A stretch of DNA of 64,000 bases, taken from the NCBI GenBank assembly GCA_964006375.1, contig OZ023267.1, positions 27,774,739 to 27,838,738 on the forward strand. The letters run 5' to 3'. Position 1 is the stretch's first letter; each line of letters starts with the position of its first letter. The notes beneath the pieces are model-generated. The model was not told the origin of the DNA, searched no databases, and was given only the letters and a program-made list of their open reading frames with translations. The translations under genes were made by a program, and so were the position numbers. Of the stretch, positions 1,311 to 63,875 are shown piece after piece. Source of the DNA: Tillus elongatus. Taxonomy: Eukaryota; Arthropoda; Insecta; Coleoptera; Cleridae.

Positions 1311-1801
1311 TTTAATTATCTATTATTATTATTATTTTCATTATTATTATTATTAATATCATCGACTTTATCCTGAAGGGCTTTCACACTCCCTTAAAGG
1401 GAAACATTCACTCATCCCAGGTATATCAGATACCAAAGGGACTGAGCTCAGATGGAGCCCTTTCTAAGTTATCTGGCCCTGAACGACAACGCAACGCATC
1501 TTCATTTCCCAGGAATCTCCGCACGGTGTGGGCAGTTGCAAGTAGTACCGCCTTCTGCATAACCCTATAAAGATGCTCTCTAGGATCCAATATTTTAATG
1601 TTCTCTCGAAGATTCTTAGGAACCCCACCAGTTGACGACATGACTATCACTCGGACACTATCTGCCCTTTACTGTCTCTTTACTTGTATCTTGATGTCTC
1701 TGTTCTTAATGATCTTCTCGTTGTACTTCATCTCTAGATTATTAGTATTTGGAATCGCCACATCACTTAGCGTCACTTGGTTGCAGGACTTATACACTAT
1801 T

Positions 1802-1931
1802 AGTGAATTTTCGTAGAAAAAATTCACTAATGGGGAGATCCCACACTTTTGAATTTTGAAAAAATTTTTGCAAATGAGCGCGATCTAGGACCCCTAGAAC
1901 CCATATCCGGGGTCAGTTTCATATTTTATAT

Positions 1932-2027
<96 letters not shown>

Positions 2028-2923
2028 CACACCGATAACTCAAAAAATAATAGGCCGATTTTGATAAAATTTGGTACGTACCTTTCTTTTGTAAATGGCT
2101 TGGATAAGTTTGTTAGTCAGGAAAATCGGATGAGGTTTTCCGGGAAAATTTTGAGTTTTCATTCGAAAAAAATTCTTATCTCAAAAAGTAATAAGCCGAT
2201 TTCAATAAAATTTCGCGTGTACCTTCCTTTTGTAAATGGCTTTGACAAGTTTGTTAGTCAGGAAAATCGAATGAGGTTTTCCGGGAAAATTTTGAGTTTT
2301 CATTCGAAAAAAATTCTTATCTCAAAAAGTAATAAGCCGATTTTAATAAAATTTGTCGTGTACCTTCCTTTTGTAAATTGCCTTGACAAGTTCGTTAGTC
2401 AGGAAAATCGGATGAGGTTTTCCGGAAAAATTTTGAGTTTTCATTCGAAAAAAATTCTTTTCTCAAAAAGTAATAAGCCGATTTTAATAAAATTTGGCAT
2501 GTACCTTCTTTTTGTAAATCGCTTTGACAAGTTTGTTAGTCAGGAAAATCGGACGAGGTTTTCCGGGAAAATTTTGACTTTTCATTTGAAAAAATTTTTT
2601 ATCTCAAAGAATAATGGGCAGATTTTGATATAATTTAGCATGTACCTTCCTTTTGTAAATGGCTTTGACAAGTTCGTTAATCAGAAAAATCGGACGAGGT
2701 TTTCCGAAAAAATTTTGAGTTTTCATTTGAAAAAAATTTTTATCTTAAAAAATAAAAAATCTATGATAACCAAATTTGGTAGGTAGGTTTACGATATAAA
2801 AAGTAAAGTATACACCAAAATTTAGATTTCCATGTTACATGAAAAAAAAGTTATAATAAAATATTTTGTGCCAGATCATTTCTATGAAAATTCACTACCA
2901 TAACGCACTTGCTGCGTCCCGAG
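1802..2923 (-). mobile_element. HINE/DINE-1-like element copy M1 with five tandem internal units
   Basis: The 3' end, at 1802, is the hairpin AGTGAATTTT..AAAATTCACT. The 5' end, at 2923, is CTCGGGACGCAGCAAGTGCG followed by the subterminal repeat TAGTGAATTTTC. A (TA)n tract lies at 1933-2022. Between 2040 and 2740 a unit of about 155 bp is repeated roughly five times; each translates to a variant of [16 protein letters not shown], so a 203-codon ORF results by chance from repetition. The element sits inside the R2-type LINE, whose DVAIPNTNNLE region resumes beyond 1800. Confidence 0.75.
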
Positions 2924-8732: not shown

Positions 8733-10257
<1,525 letters not shown>

Positions 10258-16035: not shown

Positions 16036-16626
16036 CCATCTGCAGGTTAATGGTTAATGATATACTAGACAGAGAGCCAGAGGTGAAAAAATTCTCTGAA
16101 TTTACAAAAGCTGATTTTTTGATAGTTAATTAGGTACGCTGTGCACGTTCACATATTCTGGTCAGTCAAGGTAATCTTAGAACAGGTGCCACAGGTGCGC
16201 CAACAAAGATGTCGTTTTTATCGGGGTAATAAAATGAATTTACAAAAGCTGATAATTATTATACAGATTCTATATTGTATAACAATAAAAGTTATGTCAG
16301 TCAGTCACCTGCATACGGGAACAGAGCTGGTCAGTCAGTTCGAATGTGTGTATGAAAAATAAATAATGTGCAATTTATTTAGAAAGCTTGGATTTTTTTT
16401 TGTGGGTATATATTGACCTATTAAACATTAAAAACATAGTCAGTCAAGGGGAGGCAAATGTATGCTTTCGAAAACATAACAAATCGTGCCTCATTAACCG
16501 TTTTTAATTTTTTTAATCCATATAAATTGCAAACAAATTGCTGCAATATTTGAAACACTGCATTCTTGTTGCACTCTGTAATGCCGCCGACATCGGTGAA
16601 AGCTTTTTGGAAATCTAAGTTTCGCT

Positions 16627-16998
16627 TCAATATCTGCAGAGGTTTTCTTTTTCATTTTTTTTATAGAAAGCTGAGTTATAATCACATTCAGTAAAAGCGT
16701 GCATAACTGGCAGTGCATTACATACAAATTTTCGGAAATCTTCTGCTAACATAGAGACATCAATTATTCTTTGATGGTTCCCACATCCAACTTCCATCCA
16801 AACCTTTGATGGAGATAGTAAATTTTCCATGTTTCCTAACATTATAATGAGTATGTCCGTATCTGAACACCTTATTAAAATATTAGAATCTCTTACGATG
16901 TTGCAAACATGTAAAACTATTTTCCTATCTGCCTCCCCTTGACTGACTATGTTTTTAATGTTTAATAGGTCAATATATACACACAAAAAAAATTCCAA
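16627..16998 (-). pseudogene. XPG/PIN-like nuclease fragment of a mobile element
   Basis: The peptide has GEADRKIVLHVCNIV, LIRCSDTDILIIMLGNM, VWMEVGCGNHQRIIDV and LPVMHAFTECDYNSAF. The order EAD - SDTD - G(N) - HAFTGCDYxSAF is that of a widespread arthropod repeat-associated protein resembling the XPG-I/PIN nuclease fold, in which these acidic residues bind metal. The usual Gly of HAFTGCD is Glu here. The N-terminus of this reading frame is the palindrome arm. A fragment only; frames are lost beyond 16640. Confidence 0.55.
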
Positions 16999-17142
16999 GC
17001 TTTCTAAATAAATTGCACATTATTTATTTTTCATACACACATTCGAACTGACTGACTAGCTCTGTTCTCGTATACAGCTGACTGACTGACATAACTTTTA
17101 TTGTTATACAATATAGAATCTGTATAACAATTATCAGCTTTT

Positions 17143-17270
17143 AGTGAATTTTCTTAAAAAAATTCACTAATGAGGAGATCTCGACTTTTGAATTTTGAAA
17201 AAATTTCTTCAAATGAGCGCTAATTAGGCCCCCCAGAACACATATCCGGGGTCAGTTTGAATTTTTATAT

Positions 17271-17366
<96 letters not shown>

Positions 17367-18485
17367 ATATATATGTATCACACCGATAATTAAAAAAATA
17401 ATAGGCCGATTTTGATTAAATTTGGTGAATAAATTTCTTTTGCAAATGGCTTGGATAAGTTCGTTAGCCAGGAAAATCTGCCCAGGTTTTCCCGGAAAAT
17501 TTTGTGTTTTCTTTCGAAAAAAATTTATATCTCCCGAAATAACAAAGTAAGGGCAACCAAATTTGGTACGCAGGTTTACGTCCTTATAGGTAAGTTACCT
17601 ACCAAAATTTAGCTCTGTATGTCAAAAGACAAAAAAGTTATAGGCATTTAAAGAAAAATAAATTGGGGTTTTCCTCAAAACGTCAAAGTTGCGACTTAAA
17701 ACGTCAAAATCGGCAACATTTTGGCAAATAACTTGAAACTAATACGTGCTATGGAAATCAAATGTCTCAAGAAGGATGTTTTACAAACACTGAAGTCTTA
17801 GTTTCAACCGTCATTGTCCTTCATTTTACTAAAATGTTTCCAGAAAATTCATTTGAAATAGACGCTTTCCCTGATGCTTGGCAGTAGCCTTAGCTATAGA
17901 GTTTATCGTTTAATGGTATATAATTTTTGTCGAATTTTCGTAAAAAATCAATAAAGCTCAATATATCCGTTATTATACAAGATTTGAAAAAAATTTGTAT
18001 ATATTAATTATAGGGTGTCTTGAGCTACATCTTAAAAAAATATTTCTACAATCACAGGATGGCCCATAAGTCATTAGTGATACAAATTTTCTTTTTTTTT
18101 TAATCAAACACGCCTTATGTTATTGCATTTTCCATCGAAATATAATGCATGTTTGTAAGAAAAGAAATTCTGGATGCAGCAAGTGCGTTATGGTAGCGAA
18201 CTTCGATCAAATGCTTCATATTTGAATAGCCCAATTTGCTATTAACCTATAAGGTTGACCAAGAAACGAGTTTTTCCGGGAACACTTTAAGTCTACTTTT
18301 GGAAATCTTGGTACATTTTCACACAATAAAGTTATTTTTATGAAACATGGCACATTGCTTTTATTATATAGGTTATACTGGTAACCAAAATTGATGCCTT
18401 CTTTCTTAAAAAGAAAACACACATATTTGCAATAAAAACATTTTTATGAAAATTCACTACCATAACGCACTTGCTGCGTCCAGAG
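17143..18485 (-). mobile_element. HINE/DINE-1-like element copy M2, full length (1343 bp)
   Basis: The best reference copy. The 3' hairpin AGTGAATTTTCTTAAAAAAA..TTCACT lies at 17143, (TA)n at 17274-17374, and the 5' end CTCTGGACGCAGCAAGTGCG at 18485 (minus strand). The 5' sub-unit (about 18171-18485) is flanked by inverted copies of the 5' end. It lies in the right arm of the palindromic element. The empty site, read from the opposite arm, is CAGCTTTTGTAAATTC. Confidence 0.85.
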
Positions 18486-18672
18486 TTTTGTAAATTCATT
18501 TTATTACCCCGATAAAAACGACATATTTGTTAGCGCACCTGTGGCTCCTGTTCTAAGATTCGCTTGACTGACCAGAATATGTGTACGTGCACAGCGTACC
18601 TAATTAACTATCAAAAAGTCAGCTTTTGTAAATTCAGAGAATTTTTTCACCTCTGGCTCTTAGACTATATGG

Positions 18673-21111: not shown

Positions 21112-23575
21112 TTATGTCAACAACACACCACGAGGGCTTACAGCCTAAATACTATCGTACCGTGGGTGTTGACAAGGAGGAAAGAGGCAGCTTGTTAATT
21201 CTGGACTTGAAGGTTTGGAGGTTCGGAGGAGAAGGAAAAACATGTGCCGGCAAGGAATTCCACAACTTGGAAGTCCTCGGGACAAAAGAGCGGCCATAAC
21301 AAGATGTTCTATGTCTGGTGACCTGGACGTTAAAAGGGTGCATTCGCTCTGTTCCCCTGGTAGATCTGCTGGGGGCAGCAGGTGGGGGAATTATGGAGGA
21401 AAGCTCCTCTGAGCAGTGCCCGTGCAGATATCTATAAAAGAGAGAGAGGTCACCAACGGCACGTCGGTGGGCAAGGGATGGAAGCCTTTGAGTGAGGGTA
21501 GGGTCACCGATGAGACGTATAGCTCTCTTTTGAATGGAGTCCAGGATAGCGAGTGTAGAAGCGGCAGCTGCACCCCAGATGTGGGAGCAGTATTCGAGGT
21601 TTGGCCTTATTTGTGAAGTGTATAAGGTATAGAGATTAGTTGGTGAAAAGAATTTGCGAGCCCGGAAGAGGAAACCCAATTTCTTAGCAGCCGCTTCTGC
21701 AATTGATGTAACATGTTGGTGCCAATTAAGATTTCGATCCACAGTAATGCCAACAAGAGAAAAGGACTCATTACTTTGAATAACTTGGTTGTTCATTGTG
21801 ATGGGTCTAGGGCTGCTGTATCTCTTGTGAGAAAGAAAGCAAGACTTAGTTTTGGTGGGGTTGAATTGTACAAGATTTCTACTTCCCCAGTCTAATATTT
21901 TTTGGAGGTCTACGGAGACAGAACCCTCCATGAGTCTGCGATCCTCATCTAATTGGGCTAAAGAGACAGGCTTAGAATATTGTATGTTTGAGTGGAGGGT
22001 GCTGTCGTCCGCGTAACTGTGAACTGGGTTGGATGTGCTAGAGAGGAGGTCATTGATGTGGAGAAGAAACAAAGTAGGGGCTAAAGCTGAACCTTGAGGA
22101 ACTCCTGCATTAATTGGATACAGTTTAGAGGAATGGCCATCCACAACAACAGATATGCTCCTGTTGGAGAGGAAATTTGCTGTCCAGGTACAAAGTTTTG
22201 GTGGTAGGCCATAGGCCGGAAGTTTATTAAGCAGCGCTGCGTGCCAGACCTGGTCGAATGCTTTGGATATGTCTAGAGCAACAATCTGGGATTCACCGTG
22301 TTGTTCCATAGACTTGTTCCAAGAATGGGTGACAAAGGAAAGGAGGTCGGCAGTCGATCTGCGCTGACGGAATCCATACTGCCTGTCGTGGATTAGACTG
22401 TGTTTTTCAAGGAATTTTAGTAGTTCGGTGTTTATATACTTTTCCATCACTTTAGAGATGACTGAAAGGAGAGAAATAGGCCTGTAGTTGCTAGGAAGCG
22501 CTTTGGATCCTTTCTTGGGGATGGGTTGTACTCGAGCAGTTTTCCAGTTACTAGGGAATATGCCTTTATTGTAAGATATCTGAAACAGACGAGTCAGGAC
22601 AGGAGCAAGTTCTGGTGCGCATTTTTTGAGAACAATTGCTGTGATCTCGTCAAGGCCAGAGGCTTTCCTGGTATTAAGAGAAGAGAGCATCTTTCGTACC
22701 TTTTTAGTTTGGAAAATGATATCAGTCATTTTATGCGCGACATTGGGGACTGTTGGTGGTTGAACATTTGGAGGTGGGTTGAGAGTAGAATTTCCGGCGA
22801 ACAACGAAGCAAAAAGTTCAGCCTTGCCCAGGGCGGTAGAAACAATTTCATCACCTGAGACAAGAGGTGGGAACCTGCACTTGCAGAAATTATTTCCAAT
22901 AGACTTAGCAAGAGTCCAGAAGGGTTTGCCGCCGTTGGAGCTTGAGAGGACTTTGTTTTTGATGTGGTTATTAAACGAGTTTTTTGCCTCAGAAAGAATG
23001 CGGACTAAGCGGTTTCTTGCGTCGTTGAATGCTTGACGATTTTCTTGACTGGGATTGTGTAGAAGCGTTTTGTGAGCTTTGACCTTTTCAAGTCTGGCCT
23101 TGTCACAGGATTTAGAGAACCAGGGCTTTTGAGTGGCTGAAGAGGTTTTCTGTGTACGTGGAATAAATAATTCCATGCCAGCTTGGATAATTTCGGTGAC
23201 GTTTTGTGAGATATCAGAGGGGTCAGGATGAGAGAAGCAGACAGACGCCCATGGAAATGAGGAAAAGTAATCCCGCATTTCGTCCCAGTTTGCGGAGTTG
23301 TAGTGCCAAACGATACGTGGGTGTGATGACTGTGTGACCTCGGGTTGCATTGCACAGGAAGCAGTGACCATGCCGTGGTCTGAGCGACCAAGGGGGGCGG
23401 TGACTGATATCTTATAGCATTCAGGATTTGTAGTAAGAAGGAGATCCAGGGGATTTGAGCTGTGTGTTGGGATACGAGGAAAGTAAGTAGGTTGCTGTAC
23501 CATATTGGCCAAAGAATTGCTGACTGCAAAGGCCTCCGCTGCTCTCCCTTGTGGATCGGTTTTTGAAGATCCTAG
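21112..23575 (-). CDS. Jockey-like LINE family A, copy 3: 786-codon endonuclease/RT ORF, 5' truncated
   Basis: A long uninterrupted frame (23512 down to 21152; open to about 23575). It begins inside the apurinic-like endonuclease (the LGRSDHGMV box near residue 42). After a linker comes the RT domain: IPKKGSKALPSNYRPISLLS, the KAFDQVWH box, GVPQGSALAPTLFLLHINDL and the catalytic YADDSTLH. The thumb and C-terminal region follow (PNLEYCSHIWGAAAAST, LPSLAHRRAVGDLSLFYRYL, SKLWNSLPAHVFP). The RT motifs are complete but the endonuclease N-terminus and ORF1 are missing, so it cannot move by itself. It is the youngest-looking LINE in the window. Confidence 0.85.
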
Positions 23576-23800
23576 CCTGTAAAGAAAGGCTTTCTACGAG
23601 GTCAATTTTCCGAGGAACTGGTTCTTCGTTTTTAATTTGACATTTTACCAGTCGTTTAATTTTTTTATTTTGTATGTTACTTTTCTTAACCATTTTCGCG
23701 TTTATGACTACAAACATTTTCCTCTGAAAATTGCACCGTTCTTCATATTCTAAGTTGTCTAACTTAAAGGTAAATTTTTTAAAAAACAAACTGCCTGTAT
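23576..23800 (-). other. Unrecognised basic reading frame beside the LINE
   Basis: Minus-strand frame with VVINAKMVKKSNIQNKKIKR and EPVPRKIDLVESLSLQARI. It is lysine-rich and may be the N-terminal part of the Penelope remnant at 19080-20275, pushed away by the LINE copies. No motif proves this. Confidence 0.3.
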
Positions 23801-24548: not shown

Positions 24549-24776
24549 GTCTGAAGACTAACTAGATATCAATATACCCTCGTATATATACAATAGATGA
24601 AAAATACTGCATGATTTGTCTCATAAATGCATGGTCTTTTAGGTAAACAAAATAAAATGGTTAAATAAGGAAACATCACAGCCGCCTATAAATTATGTTA
24701 CAAAAATAATATTTATTTTTAAGTTGACATCTAAGACGTTCACTAAGTGAAGATTGGAACCTGTGATGAGCACTGA

Positions 24777-25862
24777 TAGGTACACTTGGAGAACCCAAAT
24801 GACCACAACTCATCATTTTAAAGACCTAACGATCGTTTCACTAACAAAGTTAGCGTCTTCGGATGATGAAATGTCTGAATGTTTAGATTGATTCTTGAAT
24901 TTTTCCTCATCTGTTGACGCTAACTTTGTTAGTGAAACGATCACCAGGTCTTAAAAAGAAAATATCACATCCGCCTATAAATTGTTACAAAAATAATATT
25001 TATGTTTAAGTTGACATCTAAGATGTTCACAAAGTGAAGATTGTAACCTGTGATGAGCACTGATACGTACACTTGGAGAACCCAAATGACCACAACTCAT
25101 CATTTTAAAGACCTGACGATCGGTTCACTAACAAAGTTAGCGTCATCGGATGATGAAAATGTCTAAATTTTTAGATTGATTCTTGAATTTTTCCTTATCT
25201 GTTGACGCTAACTTTGTTAGTGAAACGATCACCAGGTCTTAAAAAGAAAATATCACAGCCGCCTATAAATTGTTACAAAAATAATATTTATGTTTAAGTT
25301 GACATCTAAGACGTTCACCAAGTGAAGATTGTAACCTGTGATGAGCTCTGATAGGTACACTTGGAGAACCCAAATGACCACAACTCATCATTTTAAAGAC
25401 CTCACGATCGTTTCACTAACAAAGTTGGCGTCATCGGATGATGAAAATTTCTGAATGTTTAGATTGATTCTTGAATTTTTCCTTATCTGTTGACGCTAAC
25501 TTTGTTAGTGAAACGATCACCAGGTCTTAAAAAGAAAATATCACAGCCGCCTATAAATTGTTACAAAAATAATATTTATGTTTAAGTTGACATCTAAGAC
25601 GTTCACCAAGTGAAGATTGTAACCTGTGATGAGCTCTGATAGGTACACTTGGAGAACCCAAATGACCACAACTCATCATTTTAAAGACCTCACGATCGTT
25701 TCACTAACAAAGTTGGCGTCATCGGATGATGAAAATTTCTGAATGTTTAGATTGATTCTAGAATTTTTCCTAATCTGTTGACGCTAACTTTGTTAGTGAA
25801 ACGATCGCCAGGTCTTTAAAAAGATCTGTTGTGGTGATTTGCGTTCTCCAAGCGTACTTATC
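24777..25862. repeat. MITE with internal tandem array of about 292 bp units
   Basis: The ends are ATAGGTACACTTGGAGAACC and its inverted partner GTTCTCCAAGCGTACTTAT. Between them about four units repeat, each with GATCGTTTCACTAACAAAGT and, further on, the inverted ACTTTGTTAGTGAAACGATC. Each unit is therefore an imperfect palindrome. Units are over 95% alike by eye, which suggests recent amplification. Confidence 0.75.
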
Positions 25863-26571: not shown

Positions 26572-28597
<2,026 letters not shown>

Positions 28598-29399: not shown

Positions 29400-31290
29400 A
29401 TATAAAACTACTCCTCAATAGGGGTGTTTCTTAGCCAACTTCTGGTAACGGATTTTTGCTACTAACAGTGGTTATATATGTTTAGTGACTGCAGTCAGTT
29501 AAACACTTCCAGTGGTGGTGGCAATAAACTGAAATATGTCAACAGTAAACTACCCCTAAATGGGGTATTTTCAGTAAACTTCGAGTAGCGAGCTGGTAGT
29601 TACCAGCATTGATTAGGTGTAAACGTATAGCTTTGTCGGATTCATACTCTTTCTGGCCGCACTGGAAAATGAAAAAACCTCAAGAGTAAAGTACCCTTAA
29701 ATATTACGATTTTTTTGTGAAACATTGGCAGCGGAAAGACATTAACATTAGGATAAAAAATATGCAATATCAGAGAAATCCTTAAAGATTAAAGCCTCTG
29801 CCAGCAACGTTCATTTTAGTCAGCTAATAACATAGTCATGTAAACTATTCCTCAATAGGGGTGTTTCTTAGCCAACTTCTGGCAATGGGTTTTTGTTACT
29901 AACAGTGGTTATATAAGTATTTTGACTGCAGTCAGTTAAACACTTTCGCTGGTGGTGGCAATAAGCTGAAACATGTCAACTGCAAACTACCCCTAAATGG
30001 GGTAATTTTTCAGTTAGCTTTTGGTAGCGAGCTGACAGTTACCAGCATTGATTATGTGCAAGTGTAAAGATTTGTCGATTTCACACTTTAACTGGTCGCA
30101 CTAGAAAATGAAAAAACCTCACGAGGGAACTACCCTTAAATATTAAGGCCTTTTTGTTAAACTTTGGTAGAGGAGAGACATTAACATTAGGATAAAAAAT
30201 CGGCTATATCAAAGAAATCCTTAAAGCCTTGGTCAGCAACATTCATTTCGATCAGTCAATTACATCGTCATGTAAAGTTCCCCTAAATTGGGGTGCATCT
30301 TAGCCATTTTCTGGTAGCGAGGTTTTTGTTACTAACAATGGGTATTTATGTATTATGACTGCAGTCAGTCAAACACTTTCGCTGGTGTGGCAATAAACTG
30401 AAATATGTTAACAGTAAACTACCCCTAAATGGGGGTACTTTTCAGTCAACTTTTGGTAGCGAGCTGATAGTTATCAGATTTTGATTATGTGTAAATGTAT
30501 AGCTTTGGCGGATTCATACTTTTTCTGGTTGCACTAAAAATTGAAAAAACCTCAAGAGTAAGCTACCCTTAAATATTAATATTTTTTTATTAAACTTTGG
30601 TAGCAAGAAGGAATTAGGATACAAAATATCCCAAAAATCAAAGAAATCCTTAAAGATTAAAGCCTCGGTCAGCAACATTCATTTTGGTCACCAAATTACA
30701 TAGTCATGTAAACTACCCCTAAACGGGAGTGTTTCTTAGCTAACTTCTGGTAGCAAATTTTTGTTACTAACAATGGTTACTTATGTATTTTGACTGTAGT
30801 CAGTTAAACAATTTAGCTGGTAGTGGCAATAAACTGGAATATGTCAACAGTAAACAACCCCTAAATAGGGGTATTTTTCAGTCAGCTTTTGGTAGCGACC
30901 TGACAGTTACCCGCAATGATTATGTCTAAATGCATAGTTATGTCGGATTCATATTTTTTCTGGTCGCACTAAAAAAATGAAAAAACCTCAAGAGTAAACT
31001 ACCCTTAAATATTAAGGTCTTTTTGTTAAACTTTGGTAGCTAGAAGGAAGTATCATTAGGATACAAAATATGAAATATTAAAGAAATCAAAGATGAAAGC
31101 CTCGGTCAGCAAGATTATATGTGGTCAGCAAATAACATCGTAAGGTAAAGTACCCTTAAATGAAGGTGCATCTTGGCCAACTTCTGGTAGCGAGTTTTTT
31201 GTAGCGAACAATAGTTATATATGTATTTTGACTGCAGTCAGTTAAATACTTTCGACGGTAGTGGCAATAAACTAAAATACATTATGGTTC
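29400..31290. repeat. Satellite-like array, about 435-bp period, five units
   Basis: The landmark CTACCCCTAAA(T)GGGGTGTTTCTTAG recurs near 29408, 29844, 30276, 30711 and 31148. Inside each unit the palindromic box ACCCCTAAATGGGGT occurs in two places and a weaker form (ACCCTTAAATATTA) in a third, so a higher-order structure is built on a shorter ancestral repeat. No ORF spans it. Confidence 0.8.
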
Positions 31291-31572: not shown

Positions 31573-32346
<774 letters not shown>

Positions 32347-33760: not shown

Positions 33761-35347
<1,587 letters not shown>

Positions 35348-35350
35348 AAT

Positions 35351-35640
<290 letters not shown>

Positions 35641-38096: not shown

Positions 38097-39112
38097 ATTC
38101 TGGGCGCAGCAAGTGCGTTATCGTAGCGAATTTTCCTAGAAATGATCTTTTTTTTTTACAAAAATTATAATAGTATAGGACAAGAGAATAATAATTGTAT
38201 CCAACAGAAAACTATTTCAGTCTTGCGCCTTCCTGGGACCTTCAGTGGCGCCAAACATTTTTTTCATCAAAGTTTTATAACTTTTTTCTTTTAACTTGGA
38301 GACATAAGTTCTGGTATATAGTTCAACTTTTATAATTTTAAGCTCTGATATTTTCGAAGATATAAAAATGTTCCGAAACAAAATTTTAAATTTTCTCAGA
38401 ACAACTGGATGTTTCTGGCTAACGAGCATTATCTAAGCTAATTACAAAAACTCTGGACGCAGCAAGTGCGTTATGGTAGTGAATTTTCATAAAAATGTTT
38501 TTATTGTAAATATGTGTGTTTTCTTTTTAAGAAAGCAGGAATCAATTTTGGTTACCAGTATAACCTATATAGTAAAAACAATGTGCCATGTTTCATAAAA
38601 ATAAGTTTATTGTGTGAAAATAAACAAAAATTTACAAATGTAAACTTAAAGTGTTCCCCGAGAAACTCGTTTCTTGGTCAACTTTATAGGTTAATAGCAA
38701 ATTGGGCTATTCAAATATGAAGCATTTGATCTATATTCGCTACCATAACGCACATGCTGCATCTAGAATTTCTTTTCTTACAAACATGCATTATATTTCG
38801 ATGGAAAATGCAAAAATGCAATAACATAAGGCATGTTTGATTAAAAAAAAAAAAGAAAATTCACCAACAACTTATGGGCCAGCCTGTGCTTGCAGAAATA
38901 TTTTTTAAGATGTAGCTCAAGACACCCTATAATTAATGTATACAATTTTTTTTCATATCTTGTATAATAACGCATATATTGAAATATGGTGCATGGTTTC
39001 TACTATGAAGGTCATACTATCTCTACCAAATTTGATATTTTACATCAAAATACATTTCATATTAAAAACATTTAAATAAAAGCTCGTTATCATAACGCAC
39101 TTGCTGTGTTCC
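38097..39112 (+). mobile_element. Two adjoining HINE 5' units
   Basis: The first begins TGGGCGCAGCAAGTGCG at about 38101, the second CTCTGGACGCAGCAAGTGCG at 38451. The second contains the conserved 69-codon frame (INFGYQYNLYSKNNVPCF) and the inner inverted end near 38740-38765. A further inverted end (CATAACGCACTTGCTG) lies at about 39090. The (TA)n part and the 3' hairpin are missing. Confidence 0.65.
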
Positions 39113-39382
39113 AACTTTTTTTAAATATAGGTTCAACAACTTGAATGTCATTTTATGTTAGACCCCTGGTGACGCTGTGAATAACGATACCACATATACT
39201 CCTCTTTAACAACTCGAAAAATAATGAAGTTAGGTTTGCGCATGCTCCATCCGCCATATGTATAAATGTCATTTTTTGCAAAGTAAAAATTCAGAACTTT
39301 ATTATTTTGACAGGCCAGACTAAATGTCATTTTCAAATTTAACCTCTAATTTTTAAACCCTGGTCTGCCAACTTGGATTATC

Positions 39383-41022
39383 TCTTCGCGTTAGACATGG
39401 AAAATAAATTGTCGAATGTGTTTCTATCGAAACTCTGACAGTTTGTTGGTTAACTAGCTAATAATGGCACGGTTAAATTACACACACGAAGATTATTTTA
39501 ATTTATTTACTATTTATGGAGAATGTAATAAAGTAGTTTCGCGAACGTGTGATACATTTGCTGATAGATATCCATATAAACAGAGACCGTCACGTAAAAC
39601 CCTCAAACGAATAGTAGACAATTTCAAAAACTGCGGATCTGTCAAGAAAAAGGTGCATAGGGCTAAACCCGTTGTTAACAATGAACAAATTGAGACAGCA
39701 ATTTTGGGATATTTTGCCGCATACCCTACAAAGTCAACGAGGCAAGTAGCACTGGAGTCAGGATTGTCCAAAACCTCCGTTCTGCGAATTTTACGTAAAC
39801 ATAAGTTCCATCCTTATGCTTTTTCAGTTGTGCAACATTTGAAGGAAACTGATTTTACCAGAAGGGTGGAGTTCTGTGAATTTATTTTAATGCGATTCCA
39901 AGAAAACGAGCAGTTTTTAGATAACATCATATGGACGGATGAAGCAAAATTTTCAAAAAATGGACTTTTCAATCGTAGAAATTCTCACTATTGGAGTGAC
40001 ACAAATGTTCATCCTTCTAGGGAAGGAAATTTTTAGGAAAGCTGGCAGTTTAATGTTTATTGTGCTATAAGGAATGACGGCGTCGTTGCCCTAGAAATAT
40101 ACGACGATAATTTGAATGGTGAGAATTAATCCGAAATTCATAAAATACGTTGTTTATTATGATTTATTTATTTGTAGGTGAGCGTTATTTGGAAATTTTG
40201 CAAAATTTGGAAGTAACTTATTTGGACAACCTTCCTTTGAATGAATATAGGCAAATATTTTACCAACATGATGGGGCCCCTCCTCATAATGATCACCTGG
40301 TTAACAATATTTTACAATCTCTATTTGCTGACCAATGGATTGCCAACAATGGGCCACACCTCTGGCCACCTCGATCGCCTGACTTATCTGTTCTCGATTT
40401 TTTTATATGGGGTACTATAAAAAATAAAATCTACAACACTGCAGTTTCTACTAAAGAAGATTGCATGCAGCGGGTTCGCGAATCATTTCGTGAATTGGAT
40501 CCGGATTCAATAAGAAGGGCCACACATGAGGGATTGACACGTAGGTGTGAAAAATGTCTTGACGCCAGAGGTCGTCAATTTGAACACATAGGACGTTAAT
40601 TTTTGTTTCATTTTATTCAGTCCATGTTGTGTGTGAATTTTTTTTATTTATTTGTATTATCTGTTTGATGGTTTTATATAAGGTTATATGGCAAAATACC
40701 TAAAAATTGCTGTCTCAATTTGTTCGTTGTTAACAACGGGCTTAGCCCTCTGCACCTTTTTCTTGACAGATCCGCAGTTTTTGAAATTGTCTACTATCCA
40801 TTTGACGGTTTCATGTGACGGTTTCTGTTTATCTGGATATCTATCAGCAAATGTATCACACGTTCGTGAAATTACTTTATTACATTGTCCATAAATAGTA
40901 AATAAAATTTAAATAATCTTCGTGCGTGTAATTTAACCATGCCATTATTAGCTAGTTAACCAACAAACTGTCAGAGTTTCGATAGAAACACATTCGACAA
41001 TTTATTTTCCATGTCTAACGCT
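39383..41022 (+). mobile_element. Mariner-like element whose 5' end is duplicated in reverse at its 3' side
   Basis: The 335 bp from about 39383 to 39720 (leader plus the first 85 codons of the transposase) recur inverted at 40688-41022, about 90% alike. Both outer edges carry CGTTAGACATGG. A TA duplication was not found at these edges, so the true ends of the transposon are uncertain. Confidence 0.7.
39464..40599 (+). pseudogene. DD41D mariner-like transposase with a 59-nt intron
   Basis: Starts MARLNYTHEDYFNLFTIYGE. The helix-turn-helix region includes KSTRQVALESGLSKTSVLRI. The catalytic boxes are IIWTDEAKF, FYQHDGAPPH and SPDLSVLDFFIWG; 41 residues separate the last two aspartates. One in-frame TAG at 40034-40036 stands where the family has Gln (GNF*ESWQFNVYC). 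A 59-nt GT..AG segment (40119-40177) interrupts DDNLNG|ERYLEIL and its removal restores the frame. The stop is at about 40597. Apart from the TAG the gene is intact, about 360 codons. Confidence 0.8.
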
Positions 41023-41024
41023 TA

Positions 41025-41640
41025 TGGTAAGAAATTTATCAAAATATGGCTTTGAAATGAGTTTTTTCAAAATAAAATGAAAATCGTTTAATTTAGGTAT
41101 AGGTAATTACATACAAAGTGTCAGTGATTTTTTGAGTTTAACACGATAGTGTTATAAAAAAAGGAGGTTCCAATTTGAAAATCGCGAGATTTTCATAATT
41201 TCTCATTGCAAACTTCAAGAATTTTTTTTGGACACTCTGTATACTCTATCATTAGTCTCGATGTGGAAATAGATGGAGTGAAATATCTTTCAAGACAATT
41301 CTAAAAATCGTAACGAAATATGTTCTTATTATAAAAATATCGGTATCTATATGACTGGCCGTAAATGTCAAATTTTATCTTAAAGTCTAAATATCTTCTG
41401 GGCAGTTGATGATAGGTATAGAACATTATTTATAAAAAGTGTTCAGAATTTATTGTATCATCTGAAACTGCAATAAAATATAGGGTTTTCTATTTAAAAT
41501 AAGCGAATTGATATCTACTTCCGGTATAACCGCAAGTGCCTCCATCTTGTAAATATTTTTAACCTGTGGCCCCCAACGACTTTAGTGTAATGTCCAATTT
41601 TTAGGTTTTTCCTATTGATAGTGTGCCCGCAATCGATCGT
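41025..41640. other. No gene seen; possible mariner terminus
   Basis: AT-rich. GGACACTCTGTATA at about 41230 resembles the ends of Tc1/mariner-type elements and might be the right terminus of the preceding element. Confidence 0.35.
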
Positions 41641-41661
41641 GGGACCTCCCGGACGACCGCC

Positions 41662-41746
<85 letters not shown>

Positions 41747-42030
41747 GAAACTGACCCCAGATATGTGTTCTGGGGGGCCTAATTAGCGCTCATTTGAATA
41801 AATTTTTTCAAAAGTTGGGATCTCCTCATTAGTGAATTTTTTTAAAGAAAATTCACTAAAAGGAAGGTATCTGTAAAATTTTATCAAAATCGACACATTC
41901 TTTTTTAATCATGGGTGTGATACATATAAAAATTGTAAGTAACCTCGGAAATAACTCCAAGCGGCTTAGAAAATTGTATTAAATGTAAGAACCGCAACCG
42001 AAACTTTTGAATTTGGAAAAAAAAATTGAG

Positions 42031-43496: not shown

Positions 43497-46400
43497 CAGG
43501 GTGATTTTTTTAAGTGTCTCACCCCTGTACTTTTTTTATTATTAGAGATATCAAAACAATTCTAACGCTGTCTGACAAACTATCATGCGATGAGTTAAAA
43601 TATTGCGACAGAAAAACAATTGCACATCGCCTTCATAGAAATCCGTGGCCAACGTTGATTTTCTTAAATAGAATGATAGGCCTCAGACACATACAGTCGA
43701 TGCAGAATCGAAATCTGCGTACAACGATGCCACGCTCGCATTTCTGAGTCAAGCCGTTTCGGAGACATGACGTCACAAAATTTCAAAATGTTGCTAATTT
43801 TTTTAAGTGTCTCACCACTGTAATTTCTTTATTGTCAGAGATATCAAATAAATTCTAACGCCATCTGACAAACTATCATGCGATGAGTTAAAATATTGCG
43901 ACAGAAAAACAATTGCACATCGCCTTCATAGAAATCGGTGGCCAACGTTAATTTTCTCAAATAGAATGATAGGCCTCAGACACATACAGTCGATGCAGAA
44001 TTTAAATCTGCGTACAACGATGCCACGCTCGCATTTCTGAGTCAAGCCGTTTCGGAGACATGACGTCACAAAATTTCAAAATGTTGCTAATTTTTTTAAG
44101 TGTCTCACCCCTGTAATTTCTTTATTGTCAGAGATATCAAATAAATTCTAACGCACTCTGACAAACTATCATGCGATGAGTTAAAATATTGCGACAGAAA
44201 AACAATTGCACATCGCCTTCAAAGAAATCCGTGGCCAACGTTGATTTTCTGAAATGGAAAGATAAGCCTCAGACACATACAGTCGACGCAGAATCGAAAT
44301 CTGCGTACAACGCTTGCATTTCTGAATCAAGCTGTTTCGGAGACATGACGTCACAAAATATCAAAATGTTGCTGATTTTTTTAAGTGTCTCACCCCTGTA
44401 ATTTCTGTATTGTCAGAGATATCAAATAAATTCCAACGCCATCTGACAAACTATCATGCGATGAGTTAAAATATTGCGACAGAAAAACAATTGCACATCG
44501 CCTTCATAGATCCATGGCCAACGTTGATTTTCTTAAATGGAAAGATAGGCCTCAGACACATACAGTCTATGCAGAATCGAAATCTGCGTACAACCATGCC
44601 ACGCTCGCATTTCTGAGTCAAGCTGTTTCGGAGACATGACGTCACAAAATTTCAAAATGTTGCTGATTTTTTTAAGTGTCTCACCCCTGTAATTTTTTTA
44701 TTATATGGGATATCAAAAAAATTCTAACGTCATCTGACAAACTATCATGCGATGAGTTAAAATATTGCGATAGAAAAACAATTGCACATCGCCTTCATAG
44801 AAATCCATGGCCAACGTTGATTTTCTTAATGGAACGATAGGCCTCAGACACATACAGTCGATGCAGAATCGAAATCTGCGTACAACGATGCCACGCTCGC
44901 ATTGCTGATTTTTAAGTGTCTCACCCCTGTATTTTTTTTATTATCAGAGATACCAAAAAAATCCAACGCCATCTGACAAACTATCATGCGATGAGTTAAA
45001 ATATTGCGACAGAAAAATAATTGCGCATCGCTTTCATAGAAATCCACGGCCAACGTTGATTTTCTTAAATGGAAAGATAGGCCTCAGACAACTACAGTCG
45101 ATGCAGAATCGAAATCTGAGTACAACGATGCTACGATCGCATTTCTGAGGCAAGCCGTTTCGGAGACATGACGTCACAAAATTCAAAATGTTTGTGATTT
45201 TTTAAGTGTCTCACTCCTGTAATTTCTTTATTATGAGAGATAACCAATAAATTCCAACGCCATCTGACAAGAAATAGTTTTACGTTATAAAGCAGTTCGC
45301 AGTGAATAAATTACCCCTAAAGCATTTTGCTCTATGTGCCACATGAACGGCGTTATCTTCCGTTACAGAGCTCTGCCCGACATGTATATTCTTGTTATAT
45401 TTTAGTTGTATAAAACACAAGAAAAGCGAATTTGCCATAATTTCTTTGTATTTTCAAAATATTTTAAAAAATTACACCGCCGCACTATGTAGTAGGTACT
45501 ACACCTCGTAGTGAAAATATTAAACGTATTTCATTTGAGACTGGATGATAAGTTATATCTATTCAGTGCTGTATACGTCAGAAAAATCTAGGATAATGCA
45601 TGTCTGATTTTGACATTTGATGTCAACTGATACTTGTTTTGAATGAGATTGAAACCATTTTCCGATTTCGTATATGTGTATCGTTCTTTCGTTTTCGTCA
45701 ATCAAAAAGTTATCAGCATTCTGTGTAATTTAAGTATTTTTTCGTTTGTTTTTCTTTTATTCAGCAATTATTACAGAAGTGAGACACTTAAAAATTTACA
45801 AACATTTTAAAATTTTGTAACGTCATGTCTCCCAAACGGCTTGACTCAGAAATGCGAGTGTGGCATCGTTGTACGCAGATTTCGATTATGCATCGACTGT
45901 ATGTATCTGAGGCCTATCGTTCCATTTAAGAAAATCAACGTGGGCCACGGATTTCTATCAAGGCGATGTGCAATTGTTTTTCTGTCACAATATTTTAACT
46001 CATCGCATGATAGTTTGTCAGACGGCGTTATAATTGTTTTGATATCTCTGATAATAAAAAAATTACAGGGGTGAGACACTTAAAAAAATCAACAACATTT
46101 TGAAATTTTGTGACATCATGTCTCCGAAACGGCTTGACTCAGAAATGCGAGCGTGGCATCGTTGTATGCAGATTTCGATTCTGCAACGACTGTATGTGTC
46201 TGAGGCCTATCATTCCATTTAAGAAAATCAACGTTGGCCACGGATTTCTATCAAGGCGATGTGCAATTGTTTTTCTGTCACAATATTTTAACTCATCGCA
46301 TGATAGTTTGTCAGACGGCGTTATAATTGTTTTGATATCTCTGATAATAAAAAAATTACAGGGGTGAGAGACTTAAAAAAATCAGCAACATTTTGAAATT

Positions 46401-46682
46401 TTGTGACATCATGTCTCCGAAACGGCTTGACTCAGAAATGCAAGCGTGGCATCGTTGTACGCAGATTTCGATTCTGCATCGACTGTATGTGTCTGAGGCC
46501 TATCGTTCCATTTAAGAAAATCAACGTTGGCCAGGGATTTCTATGAAGGAGATATGCAATTGTTTTTCTGTCACAATAATTTAACTCATCGCATGATAGT
46601 TTGTCAGATGGCGTTGGAATTTTTTTGATATCTTTTGTAATAAAAAAATTACAGGGGTGAGACACTTAAAAAAATCACCCTG
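43497..46682. mobile_element. 3.2-kb foldback element with tandem-repeat arms
   Basis: The ends CAGGGTGATTTTTTTAAGTG and their complement are flanked by TA (43495-43496 and 46683-46684). The left arm has about six direct units of 290 bp (landmark TAAGTGTCTCACC at 43511, 43804, 44096, 44382, 44674, 44913, 45206). The right arm has three units in reverse (45780-46680). About 490 bp of unrelated DNA lie between. Units contain GCGATGAGTTAAAATATTGC and GTTTCGGAGACATGACGTCA. Open frames of 60-85 codons recur with the units but match nothing known. A non-autonomous Tc1/mariner-type element is likely. Confidence 0.8.
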
Positions 46683-48544: not shown

Positions 48545-48660
48545 TTTAGTGAATGTTCTTTAAAAAATCACTAATGAGGAGATTCCGACTTTTGAATTTT
48601 GAATTTTTTTTTTAAATGAGCGCGAACTGGGCCCCTTAAAACCCATATCCAGTCAGTTTA
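48545..48660 (-). mobile_element. HINE 3'-end fragment M4
   Basis: Hairpin AGTGAATGTTC..AAATCACT followed by GAGGAGATTCCGACTTTTGA and CCCATATCC, the usual sequence between hairpin and (TA)n. Confidence 0.6.
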
Positions 48661-53654: not shown

Positions 53655-53777
53655 TAGTAAATTTTCGTTAAGAAAATTCACTAATAGAGAGGTATCGATG
53701 GTGTAACTTTTGGAAAGTTTCTCTAAATGAGCGCAAATTAGGGCCCCTGGAACTAATTTCCTTGGTCAGTTAAAAAG

Positions 53778-53847
<70 letters not shown>

Positions 53848-53965
53848 CCAACCGATAACTCAAAAAATACTTCACTGATTTGGACCAAATTTAGGAAGTA
53901 CCCTATTTTGATAATGGCTTGGATGAGTTCGTTCATGAGATCTTAAGGCCCAATTTCACTTAATA
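53655..53965 (-). mobile_element. HINE 3' half M5 in the IR93a intron
   Basis: Hairpin AGTAAATTTTCG..GAAAATTCACTA, (TA)n at 53777-53843, then ATGTATCCAACCGATAACTC. The 5' half is lost. Confidence 0.65.
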
Positions 53966-56565: not shown

Positions 56566-58674
56566 GTAAGCAAATTGCCAATTATTTGTTGCTTATTTCA
56601 AATCTGTTATTCGATATTTGTGCATTTCTCTTCTTCGTGTAAAACCAACTGTTTTGTCAGTATTTATATTGACTGTTGTCTACTTTGCCAAGGTTGGCAA
56701 TACTGGGGGGAACTATTATATTGTCAGTCATCTTGTGCGTGATATAATGACTTACAAGAGATATGATCTTGCGAATATGCCACGCCATTTCTATGACGTC
56801 ATGTGGTGAGTGAAAAATAGGCGCTATCATTTGAATGTAAACACTTTCGAATACCAATTCACTCTTCTACGGTTTTTTTCAGAGTTTGCAACTTTTCGGT
56901 TATTGTAGTGATTAATTTTCAAGTTTGATCTTTGTAGGTGCGATAGCTTGGCTGTTAAAAGTTGGAGTTAGGAGCAAAAATAAGAGCTGTGTTTTGTAAT
57001 GTGTTTGCATTTAATATAAGATTAAACATGCTTTGTGCTGTTCACGGGTGTAATTAGGACAATCAGCCATACAACTTTGCCAGAGATATACTTTTTTTTA
57101 TTTCCTGCCGAAAATACGATGATAGACGTGTGGGAACAACTTTTGGGTGATGAATAAAAATGCTTTTTCTTTTCAAACAGATATTTCTATTCCTTGTCCC
57201 GACGCGTTTCGACCCTTTTTAACAGGTCATCCTCAGGGCAACCTAGAATTTACAAAAGGCTTGTCAGAAAAACTGAGTTTTCCGGTAGGCTACTTCTGAG
57301 AGGGTACAGCACAGGAATACTAGATAAAATAAGGTAACAAAAGCTAACCCCAACACTAAGTCAAAAAGTTAAAGGTTAAAAATGTCAAGCTACAAAGCTA
57401 TAAAAGATTATAGGTGTACAGTCACAAACTACTACATGCAATAAAATGAAACAAATACAAGTCAAATTGAACTACAAGAAAAGCTAGTTTGTCTTGAGAT
57501 TTTAAATTACAATAAGTCTGGCTCTAAAACTCATAAAAGCTTAAAAATTCTTCAAAAATTCTTTAAAAAACTTGGCAGGGTATTTTTTAAGTTCAAGCTG
57601 AAGACAACAAGAGGAGCGAAAGCAAACAGCACAAACACCAGCAAGCCATGCAGCTGAGAAGAAACTTTCAGAGAACATCAAACTCATTAAATGAATGGGA
57701 AATGAAACAGAGGCGAATTTTTTACTGTTTTATGAATCATGATAAAACGCCGAGATGGTGAACTTATTTACTTGTCTTGTTAAACAGGACTGAAAAACTA
57801 TAGAGTTTAATGTCCAAGGAACATGCTTCACATGTTGTTGTTGGATTGATCCATTGGCATCCGAAGTGTTACTAACTTGGAAAGTAGCAACTTTTATTGA
57901 AATTAAGAATGAATTTTTGTCTCTAAATCTCCAAATCTCTAAATCTCTAAATCTCTAAATCTCTAAATCTCTAAATCTCTAAATCTCTATATATCTAAAT
58001 CTCTAAATCTCTAAATCTCTAAATCTCTAAATCTCTAAATCTCTAAATCTCTAAATCTCTAAATCTCTAAATCTCTAAATCTCTAAATCTCTAAATCTCT
58101 AAATCTCTAAATCTCTAACTCTCTAAATCTCTAAATATCTAAATATCTAAATCTCTTAATATCTAAATCTCTAAATCTACAAATCTCTAAATCTCTAAAT
58201 CTCTAAATCTCTAAATCTCTAAATCTCCAAATCTCCAAGTCTCCAAATCTCCAAATCTCTAAATATCTAAATATCTAAATATCTAAATCTCTAAATCCCT
58301 AAATCTCTTAATCCCTTAATCAAAAATCCAGTACACGCTTCGCACGAGAGACAGAAGGCTACCGTGCTACCATGTCAATATAGCTTGCGCACTGATGGTC
58401 GGCAATCACATGCTAATATGAAATACACGCCGGTCCATCTCTCGCCGGCCGTAATTTTTTATAATGTGAATATATTTGCAAATGAATCGATTCTATTTTC
58501 TAATATTCGCTAATTAAATAGCCAAATAAGTTCGCGCTTCATTACAGCAGGTTCAACTGATGACGCCATTAGTGATTAAACAAGGTTTGGTGTTAAACTA
58601 GATGCTTTATCGCGTTGTACCTTCAGTCTTTACATAAATTACAAAATACGCTGATGTGAAAAATTTTGTTGCAG
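56566..58674 (+). other. IR93a intron with relics and a minisatellite
   Basis: 2109 nt. Around 57020-57150 a frame with LCAVHGCN and FARDILFF resembles the start of a THAP zinc finger, possibly a DNA-transposon relic. A hammerhead-like box lies at 57201-57236. The (CTCTAAAT)n minisatellite fills 57924-58320. DNA between 57245 and 57920 is unassigned. Confidence 0.6.
57924..58320. repeat. (CTCTAAAT)n minisatellite
   Basis: About 50 copies of an 8-bp unit with scattered variants (CTCCAAAT, ATCTAAAT). It lies wholly within the IR93a intron. Confidence 0.9.
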
Positions 58675-59185
58675 ATTCATCCAGAATCCTTTTTGCAACG
58701 TGGTGGATATTTATAACCATCTTGACGGCATTTTATACAGCAAACCTAACAGCTTTTTTGACACTTTCAAAATTTACATTACCAATTAACTCAGCTGAAG
58801 ATATTGGTAGAAAACGATACTCATGGGTAACTAATAAGGGCAATGCAATCGAAGATATAATCAGATCAGAAAACAATGCACTTGATCATTTTGGAGTTTC
58901 CACTTTGAAACCTTTGGGCACGGTTTTAGGTGACTCTCACATATATTCAACTTCAAGCGATGCAGTGATCCTAGAGAAATACGTCCAGAAGAAAGATATG
59001 ATATTCTTAAGGGAGAAGCCCATAGCGGATTTTGTGATGTACGAAAGTTATAAAATGAAGACCAAACAAAACGAGAAGGAAGAAAATCGATGTACGTTTG
59101 TAATGACGAAATTCAACATAACAGCTTATCCAAGAGCTTTTGCTTATTCAAAGAATTTTAAGTATCACCATATATTTGACAACGC
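58675..59185 (+). CDS. Ir93a: IR93a-like, exon with second membrane helix and S2 lobe
   Basis: 511 nt, acceptor TTGTTGCAG, donor GTGAGT. The leftover base completes Asp. The TM segment FATWWIFITILTAFYTANLT leads into AFLTLSKFTLPINSAEDIG, a sequence typical of IR93a. The S2 lobe follows (RYSWVTNKGNAIEDIIRSEN ... DAVILEKYVQKKDMIFLREK ... FAYSKNFKYHHIFDNA). The last helix and cytoplasmic tail must be in a downstream exon; none was found up to 64000. Reading on into the intron gives a false stop after DNA. Confidence 0.9.
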
Positions 59186-59241
59186 GTGAGTATTTTTTGA
59201 GTTAATTTTTTCATGTATAAAATGAATGTGTGTATGGATTT

Positions 59242-62515: not shown

Positions 62516-63654
<1,139 letters not shown>

Positions 63655-63655
<1 letters not shown>

Positions 63656-63875
63656 TTCCCCTGTCTTTCTGTAAGGAGGGTAGGGATCTTTAACTTACCC
63701 GACGGCACGTGCAGATATTCAACTTGCTCAAATACAATGCCCGAACTTCGGTTGATTTTAATATTACAGTATGTACTGAAAAAGTGAAAGGAGAACCCTG
63801 GGATCAAACTCAGTACCCTTCGGTTTAGAGGCACACGTTCTTCCACAGAACCACCGAGTCTCTAATACCCATAAT
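63655..63875 (-). mobile_element. tRNA-derived SINE family B, 3'-shortened
   Basis: The minus-strand head has GGTTCTGTGGAAGAACG and GTTTGATCCCAGGGTTCTCC, then the body as far as TCCCTACCCTCCTTACAGAA. The last third is missing. It abuts the 5' end of a HINE. Confidence 0.7.

What the first reader, a model, noticed from the sequence alone, without database searches (positions are those of the whole stretch)
17143..18485. Abundant HINE/DINE-1-like family with (TA)n core
At least a dozen copies (1802, 8733, 17143, 26572, 31573, 33761, 35351, 41641, 53655, 62519 and others) share a 5' end CTCTGGACGCAGCAAGTGCG, a subterminal TAGTGAATTTTC that matches one arm of a 3' hairpin AGTGAATTTT..AAAATTCACT, and a (TA)n tract between fixed blocks. 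Subterminal repeat, 3' hairpin and central microsatellite are the known layout of Helentron-associated elements. The long (TA)n core and the 310-bp 5' sub-unit with inverted ends appear to be special to this family.
Basis: partly seen in the sequence, partly recalled or inferred. Interest (0 to 1): 0.75.

Follow-up and report, generated by a model that had tools for sequence, protein, structure and literature searches.

The report
Abundant insect HINE (Helentron-derived) repeat family

Summary
True 5' end: T-run, TAGTGAATTTTC and its inverted partner (hairpin). True 3' end: GAAAATTCACTA-CCATA-ACGCA.CTTGC.TGCGT-CCAGAG, then a T-run. The named copy is 17142-18485, + strand; its empty site lies in the window (16073-16459, minus, 95% over 390 bp), where filled and empty differ only in T number. 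Exact 5' ends: 37,007; exact 3' ends: 15,058, in 1.72 Gb (reversed-pattern controls 0). In 37 sampled copies the T-runs at the two ends are uncorrelated (r=0.002), against a fixed TTTT duplication. The genome holds an open 2,427-codon Helentron frame (Rep, PIF1, AP-endonuclease, C48 protease); its ends were not reached, so it is only a candidate partner. The (TA)n sits where HINE microsatellites usually sit. The '310-bp sub-unit' is genuine: 40 of 48 sampled loci, all chosen by one exact 3' end on one contig, have an inverted second 3' end 300-460 bp inside; in copy C it resembles a sister subfamily's 3' end. New member of a known kind; the doubled inverted terminus is the unusual part.

The parts
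17142..18485 (+). Copy C, the named element in true orientation, 1344 bp, long form
   Evidence: Ends fixed, up to the number of T's, by the empty site; alignment to other copies
17142..17169 (+). 5' terminal hairpin: subTIR TAGTGAATTTTC, loop, inverted partner (11-bp stem)
   Evidence: -7.5 kcal/mol, z -6.3, 0 of 200 shuffles as good; conserved in copies
17266..17378 (+). (TA)n microsatellite, 113 bp
   Evidence: same position in other copies
17393..17533 (+). One unit of the 141-bp central repeat (5.1 units in copy A, 2039-2755)
17643..18422 (+). About 780-bp segment of the long form, absent in A, G and H
   Evidence: its middle part is present in 38 of 48 genome loci
18169..18249 (-). Inverted inner 3' end; 81-bp ungapped match (67 of 81 by my count of the printed alignment) to the 3' end of copy G, a different subfamily
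   Evidence: score 92; maximum of 200 shuffles 28
18168..18485 (+). 318-bp sub-unit bounded by inverted copies of the 3' terminus
   Evidence: inverted arm 300-460 bp inside in 40 of 48 loci
18448..18459 (+). 3' subTIR GAAAATTCACTA, 26 nt from the 3' end
   Evidence: same offset in 42 of 42 copies
18465..18479 (+). 3' palindrome ACGCA-CTTGC-TGCGT
   Evidence: -4.5 kcal/mol, z -3.0, 1 of 200 shuffles as good
16073..16459 (-). Uninterrupted paralogue of copy C's flanks (empty site TCAGC-TTTT-GTAAATTC)
   Evidence: 95.4% over 390 bp
1801..2923 (+). Copy A, short form with 5.1 x 141-bp central repeats
8733..10256 (-). Copy B, long form
26572..27922 (-). Copy D, long form, inserted in another copy of the family
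31573..32345 (-). Copy G, short form, G-type subfamily
33761..35346 (-). Copy H, short form; its (TA)n is split by a foldback-like insert at about 34200-35130
38451..41858 (-). Copy IJ, inserted in the core of copy K at a TTTT; 5' and 3' parts are tied together by this shared target; interior holds other transposon sequence
35351..35636 (-). Old divergent copy H0, directly followed head-to-tail by copy H (limits read by eye)
53655..53933 (+). Partial G-type copy (5' end, (TA)n, part of core)
48547..48659 (+). Partial copy (5' module)
62520..63659 (+). Old long-form copy, 67-81% identical in its pieces, without a recognised 5' end and interrupted by a tRNA-type SINE

Best explanation
A high-copy family of non-autonomous Helentrons (HINEs, Helitron2 group). 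No protein of its own was found in the copies. It carries the terminal signals on which a Rep/helicase/endonuclease made elsewhere in the genome would act: a 5' hairpin containing the subTIR directly behind a T-run, and a 3' subTIR followed by a short palindrome. Most likely route (inferred from the class, not shown here): the Helentron protein nicks at the T-run in front of the 5' end, peels off one strand by rolling-circle replication, stops at the 3' subTIR/palindrome, and inserts the strand into a T-rich target, gaining little but T's. The long subfamily, which is the majority of the loci sampled, is a chimera: between the central repeat and the 3' end it has taken up about 780 bp that includes an inverted 3' end resembling that of a sister (G-type) subfamily, so its last 300-320 bp or so are bounded by inverted copies of the terminus.
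For: SubTIR pair 12/12 in copy C (0 of 2000 shuffles); 3' subTIR at 26 nt from the 3' end in 42 of 42 copies and 11-12 of 12 positions matching in 39 of 42; own 5'/3' pairs match better than shuffled pairings over 17 nt (0 of 5000; 0.016 over positions 13-17; shared ancestry not removed). 5' hairpin folds better than all 200 shuffles. 3' run of at least 2 T in 43 of 48; 5' run of exactly 4 in 21 of 37. Empty sites: copy C, IJ and D, five further loci, and a copy upstream of the C5 Helentron frame, empty in C7. T-runs at the two ends equal in 3 of 37, r=0.002. Helentron genes are present: PF14214 at 65 places; C5:166331903-166339183 reads open for 2,427 codons with DUF6570, Helitron_like_N, PIF1, Exo_endo_phos and Peptidase_C48 matches and IEFQQRGSPHAH, the Helentron-diagnostic form in PMC4067079 (section 7 read). 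Head-to-tail neighbours at H0-H, 28597 and L026.
Against: No Helentron with the same termini was found: C5 and C7 match in three fetched pieces spanning about 14.5 kb without reaching an end, so the partner is unproven. Head-to-tail pairs are few (one search flagged 1 of 43 copies with a 5' flank, and did not flag H0-H) and could come from insertion into the T-run behind an older copy. The 3' palindrome has one mismatch in 3 of 7 complete window copies (D, G, H), and its fold is only moderately better than shuffles (1 and 5 of 200 as good in C and A). The window-only test of 5'/3' pairing was weak (fraction 0.048). The C5 empty site also gains one A among the T's. Gained T's could be a T-only duplication in single cases (C: 4 becomes 4+4). 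Five of 48 loci have an A, not T, directly after the 3' end. Pairing of 5' and 3' ends takes the nearest upstream 5' module, so some of the 37 pairs may be wrong.
Confidence: 0.9

Rival explanations
1. A cut-and-paste MITE family with a 4-bp TTTT target-site duplication.
For: Copy C: empty T4 becomes 4+4; IJ: T4 becomes 4+5; L041: T6 becomes 6+4; a 5' T-run of 4 is the commonest (21 of 37). Earlier authors filed DINE-1 as a MITE (PMC2374699, abstract start in the listing).
Against: Termini are asymmetric: the inverted repeats sit 0 nt and 26 nt from the ends. T-runs at the two ends are uncorrelated (r=0.002) and equal in 3 of 37; 6 of 37 have only TT at the 5' end. No search was made for a DDE gene with these ends.
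Confidence: 0.06
2. A canonical Helitron1-type non-autonomous family.
For: Genes with the Helitron1-type motif RGLPHxH are in this genome: 12 of the 15 loci in which the motif could be read, among 34 scanned.
Against: No 5'-TC and CTRR-3' ends, and insertion is at T-runs rather than between A and T; the hairpin at the 5' end is a Helitron2 feature (PMC3627910 and PMC5148889, passages).
Confidence: 0.02
3. The inverted-ended 318-bp unit is an independent mobile element that happens to sit inside the long form.
For: It has inverted 43-bp ends that are identical over 28 nt in the subfamily consensus and is preceded by an A/T-rich stretch as at a target.
Against: In the 48 sampled loci the inverted arm comes with the long-form middle segment in 38 of 40 cases. 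No solo unit was recognised, but the sample is anchored on one 3' end and solo units were not searched for without bias.
Confidence: 0.1

Closest known systems
DINE-1/HINE, Helentron-associated interspersed elements (PMC4067079: abstract, passages and section 7 seen)
   Same: 5' subTIR with a nearby inverted partner, microsatellite, central tandem repeats, 3' subTIR, 3' palindrome, T-rich target without other target modification, very high copy number, Helentron genes in the same genome
   Different: (TA)n as microsatellite; long subfamily with an extra inverted 3' end inside; autonomous partner not linked by its ends
Helitron2 group with asymmetric terminal inverted repeats (PMC3627910 and PMC5148889: passages seen)
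   Same: 5' ATIR 0-2 bp from the 5' end within a hairpin, 3' ATIR 20-30 bp from the 3' end (26 here), hairpins at both ends, insertion behind TTTT
   Different: Chlamydomonas members described there have 7-19 bp target-site duplications; none seen here
Cg_HINE of the Pacific oyster (PMC7492417: passages seen)
   Same: subTIR, complementary IR, microsatellite in the left part, satellite-like central repeats, 3' subTIR, palindrome
   [quoted passage not shown] here (TA)n
Lep1 and other insect non-autonomous Helitrons (PMC4344730, PMC4038834: listing only)
   Same: Non-autonomous rolling-circle elements in insects
   Different: Sequence relationship not tested; four patterns from this family's ends had no exact match in the viral contigs

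Membership tests
HINE (non-autonomous Helentron) | 5' subTIR near the 5' end with an inverted partner a few nt downstream | tested here: met
   37,007 exact matches genome-wide, control 0
HINE (non-autonomous Helentron) | 3' subTIR inverted to the 5' one, tens of nt from the 3' end | tested here: met
   26 nt from the end in 42 of 42 copies; at least 11 of 12 match in 39 of 42
HINE (non-autonomous Helentron) | Short 3' palindrome behind the 3' subTIR | tested here: met
   ACGCA-CTTGC-TGCGT; stem intact in 4 of 7 complete window copies (A, B, C, IJ), one T-G or G-T mismatch in D, G, H; fold
HINE (non-autonomous Helentron) | T-rich target, no other target-site modification at empty sites | tested here: met
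   T-only duplication cannot be excluded; one A gained in the C5 case
HINE (non-autonomous Helentron) | Microsatellite and/or central tandem repeats | tested here: met
   (TA)n and 141-bp repeats
HINE (non-autonomous Helentron) | Shares its termini with an autonomous Helentron of the same genome | tested here: inconclusive
   Helentron frame with endonuclease found but its ends were not reached
HINE (non-autonomous Helentron) | Moved in trans by the Helentron protein as a single strand | not testable with these tools
   Needs a transposition assay
Canonical Helitron (Helitron1) | 5'-TC and CTRR-3' ends, insertion between A and T | tested here: not met
   Ends
Cut-and-paste MITE | Terminal inverted repeats at both outer ends and a constant target-site duplication | tested here: not met
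   Asymmetric inverted repeats; T-runs unequal in 34 of 37; no duplicated non-T sequence seen

The most novel reading that the evidence does not exclude
The inverted second 3' terminus is not a passenger but a reason for this subfamily's success. Two head-to-head terminators about 320 bp apart, identical over 28 nt in the subfamily consensus, would give a Helentron protein a second, opposite-strand stop or start signal, or a large foldback that stabilises the single-stranded intermediate. The element would then be a rolling-circle transposon that has acquired a TIR-like tail, by one HINE subfamily taking up the inverted end of a sister.
Probability: 0.15. Interest if true: 0.6.

Novelty: new member of a known kind. 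Interest (0 to 1): 0.3.

Why it matters
It adds a very large, fairly young HINE family (37,007 exact 5' ends; median 4.6% from consensus over the last 330 bp among the 42 copies aligned as long form) with usable empty sites, in a genome that still has an open Helentron frame. That makes it a good place to settle two open points about Helentrons: how the T's at the ends are gained, and whether the 3' palindrome sets the end point. The doubled inverted terminus offers a natural test of the second.

Tried and rejected
Treating 7501, 54741, 55596, 29265 and 39118 as complete copies: rejected, only single (mostly diverged) 3' ends were recognised there. The idea that the C5/C7 Helentron ends in the HINE copy lying downstream of it: rejected, the downstream copies in C5 and C7 differ and have their own 5' modules. 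The three genome-contig hits to an 18-mer were taken as chance (about seven are expected by my own arithmetic from the collection size) and not examined. Viral contigs: four patterns, no exact match; that collection may leave out records near the window's genome. In one search, 14 of 41 joined flanks had a spanning hit; L025, L026 and L049 matched only element junctions and are not counted, leaving 11, of which L009, L013 and L035 are uncertain and 8 are used (L011, L018, L027, L041, L042, C, D, IJ); that no non-T sequence is duplicated was judged by eye on that output. Body of the 318-bp unit against the central repeat: weak only (best score 35 against shuffle maxima 30-32). A genome-wide count of the inner-arm pattern did not complete. 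Beetle affinity rests on one receptor exon with named hits in Ignelater, Callosobruchus and Dendroctonus, but also in moths, flies and hemipterans lower in the list, and is not pressed. The copies' lack of protein was judged from the absence of long frames in them other than (TA)n reading frames, not from a domain scan.

Full report
The observation. The repeats are present and far beyond chance. Comparing copy 17142-18485 with the window, with its (TA)n masked, gives seven copies with both ends and eleven further single ends on both strands.

Polarity. Read the other way, it falls into the published order. A T-run is followed directly by TAGTGAATTTTC and its inverted partner (11-bp stem, -7.5 kcal/mol as DNA, 0 of 200 shuffles as good). 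Then come a conserved block, the (TA)n, one or more 141-bp central repeats (5.1 in copy A), the 3' subTIR GAAAATTCACTA 26 nt from the 3' end (42 of 42 copies), the palindrome ACGCA-CTTGC-TGCGT, CCAGAG, and a T-run. The palindrome's stem is intact in 4 of 7 complete window copies and has one mismatch in D, G and H; its fold is weaker evidence (1 of 200 shuffles as good in C, 5 of 200 in A). PMC3627910 (passages) gives 0-2 bp and 20-30 bp for the two distances in Helitron2, and hairpins at both ends. PMC5148889 (passages) gives insertion between TTTT and T or C for Helitron2 and in a TT dinucleotide for Helentrons. PMC4067079 (passages) gives the same plan for DINE-1 and HINE, with a microsatellite and central repeats.

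The two subTIRs go together. Over 17 nt, each copy's own 5' and 3' ends match better than shuffled pairings (0 of 5000 shuffles of 42 copies; 0.016 for positions 13-17 alone). With the seven window copies alone the signal was marginal (0.048). Shared ancestry within subfamilies was not removed, so this is supporting, not decisive.

Target sites. For the named copy there is a near-perfect empty site in the window. Its flanks, joined, match 16073-16459 on the minus strand at 95% over 390 bp, and at the junction only the number of T's differs: empty TCAGC-TTTT-GTAAATTC, filled TCAGC-TTTT-element-TTTT-GTAAATTC. Copy IJ sits in the core of another copy at a TTTT, and copy D in another copy at a longer T-run. 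Of 41 joined flanks tested against the window and the sampled loci, 14 had a spanning hit; three match only element junctions and three are uncertain, leaving eight. A further case is a copy upstream of the C5 Helentron frame, empty in C7; there the 3' side also has one extra A among the T's. No duplicated non-T sequence was seen, judged by eye. Among 37 sampled copies paired with a 5' end, the T-runs at the two ends are uncorrelated (r=0.002) and equal in 3; the 5' run is 4 in 21 and 2 in 6. The pairing takes the nearest upstream 5' module and may be wrong in some. A fixed TTTT duplication does not explain this, but single cases such as copy C are compatible with one. Five of 48 loci have an A before the T-run at the 3' end.

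Genome-wide picture. The host assembly has 1.719 Gb in 30 contigs. The exact 3' 20-mer occurs 15,058 times and an exact 5' hairpin pattern 37,007 times, with reversed-pattern controls of 0. Mutated ends are missed, so ends of the family are more numerous. I took 48 loci around exact 3' ends, all from the first 5.6 Mb of contig 1; they are therefore biased to one 3' end and one region. Of the 48, 37 have a recognisable 5' end; lengths run from 511 to 2118 bp, 23 of 37 between 1327 and 1504.

The 310-bp sub-unit. In the window, copies A, G and H are short: the central-repeat part is followed directly by the 3' end. B, C and D carry about 780 bp more, and IJ has the 3' part of that segment. Inside the segment lies an inverted 3' end. 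In copy C it matches the 3' end of copy G over 81 bp (score 92, shuffle maximum 28) but its own 3' end over only 43 bp (score 56, shuffle maximum 28), so it probably came from a G-type copy. An inverted arm 300-460 bp inside the 3' end is present in 40 of 48 loci, 38 of them with the long-form middle segment; 8 of 48 have neither. Over the last 330 bp the 42 copies aligned as long form (38 loci and 4 window copies) differ from their consensus by a median of 4.6%, with six at 20-33%, and in that consensus the two arms are identical over 28 nt. The old copy at 62520-63659 already has the arrangement. So the sub-unit is an old and successful feature of the commonest sampled subfamily. Whether it does anything is open. 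I consider hitch-hiking more likely than function.

A source of transposition protein. Helitron_like_N (PF14214) is found at 65 places. The Rep motif could be read in 15 of the 34 loci scanned: 12 carry the Helitron1 form RGLPHxH, and three (L081, L082, L084) carry RGSPHxH, the form that PMC4067079 gives as diagnostic for Helentrons (section 7). The frame at C5:166331903-166339183 is open for 2,427 codons and matches DUF6570, Helitron_like_N, PIF1, Exo_endo_phos and Peptidase_C48. A protein with PF14214, PF05970, PF20209 and PF02902 is among the 120 relatives listed (P0123), so the protease domain is not unique. C5 and C7 match in three fetched pieces spanning about 14.5 kb and no end was reached; the stretch of C7 between the pieces was not fetched. 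The partner relation to this HINE family is therefore not shown.

Verdict. A new, very abundant HINE family: ordinary in kind, unusual in carrying a second inverted terminus in most sampled copies. The rows listed by the four answered literature searches showed nothing on this feature; they are capped listings and do not show that it is unpublished.

Noticed in passing
16073-16459 and 16926-17141 + 18486-18660: Inverted repeat with arms of about 390 bp at 95-96% identity; copy C is inserted in the right arm. Perhaps a foldback-type element.
   Followed up: partly
34200-35130: Foldback-like element with inverted ends (TGAGACATACTTGGTTCTCGG) and internal 89- and 112-bp repeats, inserted within the (TA)n of copy H. 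TA tracts of HINEs may serve as landing sites for other elements.
   Followed up: partly
39388-41021: Transposon-like stretch with 341-bp inverted ends (93%) and transposase-like frames (39458-40599; DUF4817 over its cut-off, Tc3-type helix-turn-helix below its cut-off), inside copy IJ.
   Followed up: no
21152-23593: Open 813-codon frame with a reverse transcriptase domain (PF00078), a non-LTR retrotransposon-like protein.
   Followed up: no
62720-63080 and from 63655: tRNA-type SINE (box-B-like sequence on the minus strand) with a probable duplication ACAATTGGCAATG; a second copy follows. Recognised by eye.
   Followed up: no
58638-59189: Ionotropic-receptor-like exon (PF00060); the best-scoring named relatives are in beetles (Ignelater, Callosobruchus), with other insects below.
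   Followed up: partly
29405-31279, 24661-25824, 43504-46677: Satellite-like tandem arrays with units of about 436, 288 and 293 bp.
   Followed up: no
L082 5903 to L083 3183: Open 2,427-codon Helentron frame with a C-terminal Ulp1-type (C48) protease match; a HINE copy sits upstream of it.
   Followed up: partly
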